A stretch of DNA of 43,442 nt from positions 1 through 43,442 of the forward strand of contig CALUOB010000005.1 in NCBI GenBank assembly GCA_944322175.1, read 5' to 3'. Each line of letters begins with the position of its first letter. Positions within the stretch are counted from its first letter, which is position 1. Under the pieces are notes generated by a model that made no database searches, was not told the DNA's origin, and saw only the letters and a list, made by a program, of their open reading frames with translations. Shown here piece after piece: positions 9,334 to 42,886 of the stretch. A program made the translations under genes and the position numbers. The stretch is from an uncultured Coriobacteriaceae bacterium (GTDB lineage Bacteria > Actinomycetota > Coriobacteriia > Coriobacteriales > Coriobacteriaceae).

Positions 9334-9440
9334 GCAGAGCGCAGAGTTGTAAGCGCGACGACATGCACCACGGGTCTGCCCCGGGGGTGTGCACCGCACG
9401 TTACGCTCTGAGAGTCCTGCATGGCGGCCCCAGCTTAGCG

Positions 9441-9577
9441 TTTTGACGGGAAATGGAGGTTCCTTCGAGAATCTCCGAGTAGCCTGAAAACGGCCGACCG
9501 ATCTACCTGCGGATATGCTGCGTGAAAACTGCCCTCTACTCGGGCTTGCGGGGATGAACCGCCATTTCCCGTCAAAA
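9441..9577. repeat. Core-and-arms structured element, copy 1
   Basis: A perfect 16-bp inverted repeat forms the outer arms (9441-9456, TTTTGACGGGAAATGG, with 9562-9577). Inside are GGTTC/GAACC (9458-9462/9556-9560), a 12-nt internal loop on the left strand, and CCGAGTAG/CTACTCGG (9475-9482/9536-9543). The terminal loop holds the core ATCTACCTGCGG (9501-9512) and GTGAA (9522-9526). The core, AGTAG 18 nt before it and TCTACTCGGG 22 nt after it recur at 30326-30392 with identical spacing; the core recurs at 42379. No T-run follows. Function is unknown; a structured RNA or a recombination/mobile remnant are both possible. Confidence 0.75.
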
Positions 9578-9709
9578 CTTGGTCGCAGGTGTCGTGCGGG
9601 AGTGGATTTAGCCCCCGATCGGGGTCGCCAACGTTTTCTTGGACCGGCGCGTTACGCCAGCCCAAGGAGCGAACAGGTTTTTGTGCCCTCGGTTAATGAC
9701 GGCATCGGG

Positions 9710-30201: not shown

Positions 30202-30543
30202 GTCCTGCTTCGCTTGGGGCCCGGTGCCCGAGGAGCTCCGAAGCTCGTTTCCTGGGCTTTTGTCGTTTTGAAAAGGGGCCTCGGAGAGGTTTTTCGGATA
30301 TTCGAATACTTTTGGCGAACCTTCAAGTAGAGGCAAAATCGCCACGTCATCTACCTGCGGTTTTAATACCGTGAAGGACGAGTCTACTCGGGTTCTTGGC
30401 AAAAGTTCTCGAATATCCGTCGTTCTTTGTTTTGCAAGGCGGTTCGCGGGTTGTTTTGGCTGCCCTCGTTCAGCTGAATTCGGGTTTTGTTTGCCATACT
30501 GAAGGCACCGTTTGCGTAGGTGCAGGTGTTCGGAAGGTGGTTG
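30202..30543. other. Intergenic region dominated by structured element copy 2
   Basis: This 342-bp stretch holds the element at 30295-30419 and, after it, AT-richer sequence that may contain the promoter of the serine hydrolase (CATACT near 30495). No gene with a ribosome site was found. Its base composition is visibly lower in G+C than the neighbouring genes. Confidence 0.6.
30295..30419. repeat. Core-and-arms structured element, copy 2
   Basis: Outer arms CGGATATTCGA (30295-30305) and TCGAATATCCG (30409-30419) are perfectly complementary. Inside are ACTTTTG/CAAAAGT (30308-30314/30400-30406), GAACC/GGTTC (30317-30321/30391-30395) and AGTAGA/TCTACT (30326-30331/30383-30388). The loop holds the core ATCTACCTGCGG (30349-30360) and GTGAA (30371-30375). 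Spacing from AGTAG to core (18) and core to TCTACTCGGG (22) equals copy 1, while arm sequences are unrelated. Confidence 0.75.
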
Positions 30544-42067: not shown

Positions 42068-42359
42068 GCTTGGGAGAGAACGCGGCGGCTGCCCGTCTAC
42101 GCGGTGGGGATTTGCTGACGCATCGTCCCTGCTTTGGAGAGAGCACGGCAGCTGCTCGGCCGCACGGCGAGAATCTGCAGCACATCGTCCCTGCTTGGGA
42201 GAGACTGCGGCAGCTGCTCGGCATTACGGCATGAATCTGCGGCGCATCGTCCTTGCTTTGGAGAATGACGCTGCCTCCGGAAGCAAAAAGCGGGCGTCCG
42301 CTGCACGTCGTCCCGGCTTGGGAGAGAAGGGTGCGCGCAAGATCCTTGCTTGGGAGAAG
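42068..42359. repeat. Array of about 62-bp degenerate direct repeats
   Basis: The box GCTT[G/T]GGAGA starts at 42068, 42131, 42193, 42255, 42316 and 42348, so spacing is 63, 62, 62, 61 and then 32 bp. It is usually preceded by CATCGTCC[C/T]T. The second and third units are alike over nearly their whole length, including CGGCAGCTGCTCGGC; others have diverged. TCCC/GGGA within the box can form a small stem. Confidence 0.75.
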
Positions 42360-42437
42360 TGACGAGAAAGACCGAACGATCTACCTGCGGAAACGCTGAG
42401 AGGTGCTCTTGCCGTGAACTGACAATTCCTCCCAAGC
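42348..42437. repeat. Core-and-arms structured element, copy 3
   Basis: The core ATCTACCTGCGG (42379-42390) lies between GCTTGGGAG (42348-42356) and CTCCCAAGC (42429-42437), which are complementary. Fifteen bases around the core (CGATCTACCTGCGGA) are identical to copy 1, and the 18 nt before it are partly conserved. The TCTACTCGGG element of copies 1 and 2 is absent, so this copy is diverged or rearranged. Its arms equal the box of the neighbouring array. Confidence 0.65.
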
Positions 42438-42510
42438 CGGGACGTTGCGCACGGAGGCCGGAGATCCGGCGCTCAAAACGCCGTTACTCTCCCAAGCCGG
42501 GACGTTGCGC
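42429..42510. repeat. Inverted copies of the array box
   Basis: A 22-bp sequence beginning CTCCCAAGCCGGGACG occurs identically at 42429-42450 and 42489-42510, 60 bp apart. It is the reverse complement of the array box (compare 42309-42325). Direct boxes lie left and inverted boxes right of the copy-3 core. The sequence between the two inverted boxes contains GCCGGA/TCCGGC and GGCG/CGCC hairpins. Confidence 0.75.
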
Positions 42511-42813: not shown

Positions 42814-42886
42814 TGGGCCGTTAGGGGTTCGAACCCTAGACCTTGGGATTAAAAGTCCCCTGCTCTGCCAGCTGAGCTAACGGCCC
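42814..42886 (-). tRNA. tRNA-Lys (anticodon TTT)
   Basis: A complete cloverleaf reads on the minus strand from 42886: GGGCCGT acceptor, D-arm around AGCTCAGCTGGCAGAGC, and anticodon loop ACTTTTAAT giving TTT for lysine. The T-arm AGGGTTCGAACCCCT, acceptor ACGGCCC and discriminator A at 42814 complete it. CCA is not encoded (ACCC follows). The T-stem and acceptor 3' strand are also present as a fragment at 42628-42645. Confidence 0.95.

What the first reader, a model, noticed from the sequence alone, without database searches (positions are those of the whole stretch)
9441..9577. Conserved core inside locus-specific complementary arms: a dispersed structured element family
Seen: ATCTACCTGCGG at 9501, 30349 and 42379, always intergenic and always between inverted repeats. 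Copies 1 and 2 also share AGTAG exactly 18 nt before and TCTACTCGGG exactly 22 nt after the core, plus AAAA and GTGAA. Their arms are unrelated in sequence (TTTTGACGGGAAATGG versus CGGATATTCGA) but complementary within each copy, as are the inner GGTTC/GAACC pairs, which are swapped between copies. Inference: selection acts on structure plus core, as in a noncoding RNA or single-stranded DNA substrate. A motif called Collinsella-1 RNA has been published, but I cannot compare it from memory.
Basis: partly seen in the sequence, partly recalled or inferred. Interest (0 to 1): 0.85.

Follow-up and report, generated by a model that had tools for sequence, protein, structure and literature searches.

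The report
Dispersed palindromic repeats with shared centre
The three spots are copies of scattered palindromic DNA repeats, typical of the Collinsella lineage of gut bacteria, whose short central sequence is shared by many repeat families and also serves as the exact landing site of a jumping gene of the IS110 family; they are repeats of a known general kind with an unusual build, not a locus-by-locus RNA structure.

Summary
ATCTACCTGCGG sits at 9501, 30349 and 42379 inside inverted repeats, and occurs 12 times in the genome (reversed control 0). The arms are not locus-specific: the three window copies belong to three repeat families (X, Y, B), each with many copies in this genome (about 7, 10 and 14 sites). 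Within a family the two arms of a copy are no more alike than arms of different copies. Arm mismatches are as often A·C as G·T (139 vs 128), tandem-gene copies show no clear strand preference, and nothing in Rfam matches; Collinsella-1 is a different RNA. RNA-level selection on the arms is therefore unsupported. Best reading: a superfamily of REP/MITE-like extragenic palindromes in Coriobacteriia. Its centre (Collinsella consensus TCTACCTGCGGTTTT) is shared across unrelated arm families. At fixed sites the whole palindrome is exchanged for one of another family (twice between the window's genome and its sister) or another subfamily in opposite orientation (Collinsella). An IS110-family element uses the centre as target: 21 of 23 insertion sites in six genomes. 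No target duplication, autonomous copy or linked transposase was found, so how the repeats spread is unknown.

The parts
9440..9578 (+). Element 1 (arm family X): palindromic repeat between a SIR2-family gene and the folP-like gene
   Evidence: Inverted arms; at least 6 further sites with the same arms in the genome
9440..9463 (+). Element 1 left arm GTTTTGACGGGAAATGGAGGTTCC
   Evidence: sequence; family X alignment
9478..9482 (+). Element 1 inner AGTAG, 18 nt before core
   Evidence: sequence; shared with family Y
9501..9512 (+). Element 1 core ATCTACCTGCGG
9535..9544 (+). Element 1 inner TCTACTCGGG, 22 nt after core
   Evidence: sequence
9556..9578 (+). Element 1 right arm GAACCGCCATTTCCCGTCAAAAC
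   Evidence: sequence
30295..30419 (+). Element 2 (arm family Y): palindromic repeat between a DUF3006 gene and a beta-lactamase-like gene
   Evidence: about 10 sites of family Y in the genome
30295..30314 (+). Element 2 left arm CGGATATTCGAATACTTTTG
   Evidence: sequence; family Y alignment
30326..30330 (+). Element 2 inner AGTAG, 18 nt before core
   Evidence: sequence
30349..30360 (+). Element 2 core ATCTACCTGCGG, followed by TTTT
30383..30392 (+). Element 2 inner TCTACTCGGG, 22 nt after core
   Evidence: sequence
30400..30419 (+). Element 2 right arm CAAAAGTTCTCGAATATCCG
   Evidence: sequence
42304..42450 (+). Element 3 (arm family B, CTTGGGAG arms): palindromic unit downstream of the M29 peptidase gene, facing a tRNA gene
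42379..42390 (+). Element 3 core ATCTACCTGCGG
42070..42303 (+). Further CTTTGGAGAGA / CTTGGGAGAGA units upstream of element 3 (cluster of family B arms)
   Evidence: sequence

Best explanation
The three sites are members of a superfamily of extragenic palindromic repeats (about 125-155 bp, REP/MITE-like) of the class Coriobacteriia. Shown: many arm families share one centre (ACCTGCGG, often TCTACCTGCGGTTTT) and in several lineages an inner GAGTAG...CTACTCG pair; each family is multi-copy, extragenic and over-represented between convergent genes; the whole palindrome can be exchanged at a fixed site for one of another family or subfamily; the centre is the exact insertion target of an IS110-family element. 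Inferred: the repeats are non-autonomous DNA elements that spread by copying or ectopic recombination, the palindrome matters as foldable or symmetric DNA rather than as RNA, and the centre is conserved because the (unidentified) recombination or transposition machinery recognises it. The IS110 element exploits this common, harmless site as IS621, ISPpu9 and others exploit REPs.
For: Multi-copy arm families in the window's genome and its sister: 70 and 80 BLAST matches to three families, alignments. Centre conserved when elements are collected by arms only: 22 of 24 Collinsella-A elements carry exact TCTACCTGCGG (null median 4 mismatches), Collinsella-B 5 of 6 exact; weaker in Y and X. Exchange at fixed flanks: SIR2-folP locus X in G000, Y in G003; C156:3181 X vs C74:9532 Y with nearly identical left flank, the Y copy being 82.7% like another Y copy of its own genome; in Collinsella, same flanks with other inner arms and opposite core orientation. 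Arrays: an occupied site differs from an empty one by a unit of about 250 bp bounded by direct repeats. Convergent/tandem/divergent 30/47/9 against 34/128/41 for all gaps of 150 bp or more. Flanking genes diverse, no family enriched. No strand asymmetry in arm mismatches. IS110-family insertions exactly in the core at 21 of 23 sites (transposase N-terminus identified). Other arm families with the same centre in other Coriobacteriia families.
Against: No transposase or recombinase was linked to the elements, no element with the same arms around a gene was seen, and no target-site duplication was found, so mobility is inferred from copy number and exchange. Exchange could be ectopic gene conversion rather than transposition. 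About half of the sampled 15-mer sites in distant genera lack arms, so the core may have a role apart from the palindrome. In family X the centre is poorly kept. Many copies are retained at the same locus across species, which would also fit a host function.
Confidence: 0.62

Rival explanations
1. A structured noncoding RNA family: transcribed hairpins present the core in a loop for a protein or an RNA partner, and selection keeps helix and core.
For: Strong predicted folds of copies 1 and 2 (z about -6); core at the apex or next to a hairpin AAAACCGCAGG-loop-CCTGCGGTTTT in many copies.
Against: G.T equals A.C among arm mismatches (128 vs 139); both strands fold about equally well; no clear orientation preference relative to genes; no locus-by-locus compensation in X, Y and Collinsella-B; no Rfam match; copies occur in both orientations at one locus.
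Confidence: 0.12
2. A host DNA-binding site: the core is recognised by a nucleoid, replication or regulatory protein, and the palindromic repeats are its carrier or have been domesticated.
For: Core far better kept than the rest of the interior; class-wide spread; some cores without arms; vertical retention at orthologous loci.
Against: Variable copy number (1-17 exact 15-mers per positive family genome, none in others); no functional enrichment of neighbours; whole-element exchange.
Confidence: 0.14
3. REPIN-like elements moved by REP- or TIR-associated tyrosine transposases (RAYT/TIRYT).
For: Y1_Tnp genes in 33 of 41 family genomes; the core contains the complement of GTAG; the direct repeat between elements in Collinsella arrays (TTGGGGACGGAGGAAAACGGATCA) resembles the inverted repeats around these transposase genes.
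Against: The inverted repeats around several sampled transposase genes are GGGGAC-type, not the arms seen here; no core-bearing palindrome beside those genes; G000 and G003 have dozens of elements and no Y1_Tnp gene.
Confidence: 0.07

Closest known systems
REP / BIME / REPIN elements (RAYT-associated)
   Same: Extragenic, palindromic, multi-copy, clustered, targets of IS elements including IS110 members (PMC1525189, PMC3116915)
   Different: REP ends carry the conserved sequence and sit beside a RAYT gene; here the centre is shared and the arms are exchangeable, the elements are longer and no RAYT is linked
TIR repeats of TIRYT genes (PMC3733652)
   Same: Moderately abundant inverted repeats in genomes with Y1 transposases
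   Different: In these genomes those repeats are GGGGAC-type sequences, seen around the transposases and, in a related form, between the elements, not as their arms
MITEs
   Same: Short non-coding units bounded by inverted repeats of about 16-30 bp, several families per genome
   Different: No target-site duplication, no related autonomous element found, and one interior sequence shared by families with unrelated ends
Natural target sites of IS110-family elements (IS621, ISPpu9/10)
   Same: Exact insertion into a short sequence of a palindromic repeat (PMC11208160, PMC1525189)
   Different: The target is the centre shared by many repeat families; the guide pairing was not established here
Collinsella-1 RNA (RF01700)
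   Same: Same bacteria, intergenic, structured, several copies in some genomes
   Different: Different sequence and structure; no core in the hits inspected and no model match to the elements

Membership tests
Collinsella-1 RNA (RF01700) | Covariance-model match at gathering score | tested here: not met
   No match in the window or in 12 further element loci; RF01700 finds other loci, none in G000, and those inspected lack the core
REP / REPIN (RAYT-associated) | Extragenic palindromic repeats in many copies | tested here: met
   about 30 sites for three families in G000; gene context
REP / REPIN (RAYT-associated) | Adjacent RAYT gene flanked by the same repeats | tested here: not met
   No core-bearing palindrome or matching arm pair around sampled Y1_Tnp genes; none in G000
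REP / REPIN (RAYT-associated) | GTAG tag at the foot of a short conserved hairpin | tested here: inconclusive
   GTAG occurs in GAGTAG and in the complement of the core, but not at the foot of a 20-40 nt hairpin
MITE | Terminal inverted repeats | tested here: met
   Arms of about 16-30 bp in families X, Y, A and B
MITE | Target-site duplication | tested here: not met
   No convincing excess of flanking direct repeats; decay cannot be excluded
MITE | Related autonomous IS with the same ends | tested here: inconclusive
   Arm hits inspected occur as close pairs or IS-interrupted pairs; not every genome was inspected
Target site of an IS110-family element | Recurrent insertion at one exact position | tested here: met
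   21 of 23 left junctions in an element centre, nearly all at ...ACCTGC|ACTGATAATTG; right junctions ...GGAGCGT|CGGTTT
Target site of an IS110-family element | Bridge-RNA target loop complementary to the site | tested here: inconclusive
   Only 5-7-nt word matches in the 5' non-coding region of the IS; no bridge-RNA model was built

The most novel reading that the evidence does not exclude
A previously undescribed class of modular palindromic mobile DNA in Coriobacteriia: the centre, not the ends, is the conserved recognition module, and palindromes with unrelated arms replace each other as cassettes at fixed sites. This would imply a recombinase, perhaps acting on folded single strands, that reads the centre and any foldable arms.
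Probability: 0.3. Interest if true: 0.72.

Novelty: new variant of a known kind. Interest (0 to 1): 0.5.

Why it matters
Known bacterial palindromic repeats keep their ends and let the interior drift. Here unrelated ends share one interior motif across a bacterial class, and the whole palindrome is swapped at orthologous sites. That makes the question of how REP-like elements arise and spread testable in cultured gut bacteria. The IS110 insertions also give about twenty natural insertion sites of one RNA-guided transposase family at one 12-15-nt site, useful for studying guide specificity. It further warns that complementary arms of unrelated sequence are not by themselves evidence of RNA covariation.

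Tried and rejected
Collinsella-1 RNA: rejected. RAYT mobilisation: no link. Viral origin: the scan of viral contigs gave 83 matches, about what I estimate by chance for that pattern. Target-site duplication scan: nothing convincing. Clean empty site: only an array-unit difference bounded by direct repeats was found. Bridge-RNA guide search in the IS110 non-coding region: only short word matches. tRNA control for the G.T/A.C test: uninformative, because ARAGORN brackets appear to mark only standard pairs. Literature: no paper on Coriobacteriia palindromic repeats found in the held library.

Full report
What was checked. The 12-mer ATCTACCTGCGG is at the three stated places, with AGTAG 18 nt before and TCTACTCGGG 22 nt after in copies 1 and 2. 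The window is a contig of a 2.1-Mb genome of the same family as Collinsella (taxonomy): two loci of congeneric genomes match public records named uncultured Collinsella sp. and Coriobacteriaceae bacterium (L018/L112 and L019/L095, sequences). The core occurs 12 times in this genome against 0 for the reversed pattern, and in 59 of 67 family genomes. A few hits are coding, because the 12-mer reads IYLR in optimal codons (for example L012), but most of those examined lie between inverted repeats. Random positions have a comparable stem in 2% of cases.

It is not Collinsella-1. RF01700 is Rfam's Collinsella-1; it finds other loci, none in the window's genome, and the loci inspected lack the core. 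No Rfam family reaches its threshold in the window (only a tRNA) or, at the element, in 12 further element loci.

The arms are repeat families. A BLAST search with window element 1 and its flanks found its arms at several further places in the same genome, two of them as full-length elements (C156:3181 and C13:16160). A combined query with the three window elements (and a second X copy) gave 70 matches in the own genome and 80 in its sister G003, nearly none in two other congeners. By my count of the listed places that is about 7 sites of X (CGGGAAATGGAGGTTC), 10 of Y (CGG[AT]TATTCGA.TACTTTT) and 14 of B (CTTGGGAG), several of B as clusters. Copies 1, 2 and 3 have unrelated arms because they belong to these three families. 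The alignments show arms and centre conserved within each family, with centre variants such as CTGACCTGCGG and CTGAGCTGGGG.

No sign of RNA-level selection on the arms. Across 94 distinct arm pairs, G.T and A.C mismatches are equally frequent (128 vs 139, p = 0.54); an RNA helix read from one strand would tolerate the first and not the second. Orthologous copies are partly redundant in that count. Within families X, Y and Collinsella-B the two arms of one element are no more alike than arms of different elements; Collinsella-A shows a small excess that follows its two subfamilies. Copies between tandem genes lie 27 with and 20 against the direction of transcription, and elements are over-represented between convergent genes and rare between divergent ones. 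Flanking genes are diverse, no Pfam family matching more than 2 of 62.

The centre is conserved independently of how elements were collected. Of 24 non-redundant Collinsella-A elements found by their arms alone, 22 have exact TCTACCTGCGG and 2 have two mismatches, where shuffled interiors give a median of four; Collinsella-B has 5 of 6 exact; Y and X are more degenerate. The 15-mer TCTACCTGCGGTTTT occurs in 88 of 298 genomes of the class, spread over many families, against three control hits. In two other families the sampled copies again include palindromes with new arm families (ACTGAATCCCACCATACAG; AAAACTGCGGCTTAATTGCAGT; GCTAAGTGAGCAGGCAAA), the last with the same inner GAGTAG...CTACTCG pair; about half of the sampled distant sites show no arms. 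A scan of 85,000 species gave 50 stretches, about 39 of them Coriobacteriia by my reading of the titles.

Whole-element exchange at fixed sites. At the SIR2-folP locus the window's genome has an X element and sister genome G003 a Y element at the same place, with a conserved right flank and centre. A second locus repeats the pattern with an almost identical left flank; there the Y copy is 82.7% identical to the other Y copy of its own genome, so the whole palindrome, not just the arms, was exchanged or independently inserted. In the Collinsella aerofaciens group, one locus carries elements with ...TTTACTACGATGAAT arms in some genomes and ...TTTACGGGGC arms with the core in the opposite orientation in others, between the same flanks. 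Exchange partners share their outermost 10-19 bp, so ectopic recombination is as possible as repeated insertion. No target duplication was found. One empty/occupied comparison shows gain or loss of a unit of about 250 bp bounded by direct repeats.

An IS110-family element lands in the centre. Half-elements led to insertions: an IS256-family element with an apparent 8-bp duplication (L228; Transposase_mut) and an IS110-family element (N-terminal piece matches DEDD_Tnp_IS110 / transpos_IS110; its middle is masked in the held data). Searching the IS110 end found 23 sites in six genomes. At 21 the IS sits in an element centre, nearly always exactly after ...ACCTGC, in many different arm families, and the readable far ends continue with CGGTTT. 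This matches the known use of palindromic repeats as targets by IS110-family elements (PMC1525189, PMC11208160).

What moves them is unknown. Y1 transposase genes are present in 33 of 41 family genomes but absent from the window's genome and G003. The sampled ones have no core-bearing palindrome nearby, and several are flanked by GGGGAC-type inverted repeats, as described for TIR-associated transposases (PMC3733652). A related GGGGACGG sequence is the direct repeat between elements in Collinsella arrays, so two repeat systems are interleaved there.

Verdict. Shown: a class-wide set of palindromic extragenic repeats with one shared centre, modular arms, exchange at fixed sites, and use of the centre by an IS110-family element. 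Inferred: non-autonomous DNA mobility and recognition of the centre by an unidentified machinery. Not supported: locus-specific arms and RNA-level selection.

Noticed in passing
L229, L230, L280-L302: A multi-copy IS110-family element in six Collinsella-group genomes inserts almost only at the repeat centre; parts of its transposase are masked in the held data.
   Followed up: partly
L228:9440-10960: An IS256-family (Transposase_mut) element inserted in a palindromic repeat, apparently with 8-bp duplication GCCGTCTA.
   Followed up: partly
L226, L227, L065, L076: Palindromic elements of different arm families stand about 250 bp apart, joined by a TTGGGGACGGAGGAAAACGGATCA-type repeat resembling the inverted repeats around Y1 transposases.
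   Followed up: partly
L080, L110, L096, L342, L049, L057: A second layout: a terminator-like hairpin followed 15-45 nt later by a single core, without flanking arms.
   Followed up: no
L006, L009, L011, L021, L026, L031: In these copies the core is itself one half of a hairpin, pairing with a downstream copy of its complement (CGCAGGTAGAT).
   Followed up: no
window 9501-9512 and inner hairpin of L100, L217: CCTGCGGTT and the hairpin AACCGCAGG...CCTGCGGTT resemble helix 45 at the 3' end of 16S rRNA (from memory, not tested); possibly coincidence.
   Followed up: no
L059-L064: Collinsella-1 (RF01700) has weak, partly sub-threshold matches at several loci per genome, suggesting a broader family than the Rfam model.
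   Followed up: no
window 42814-42886: tRNA gene on the minus strand next to the family-B repeat cluster.
   Followed up: no
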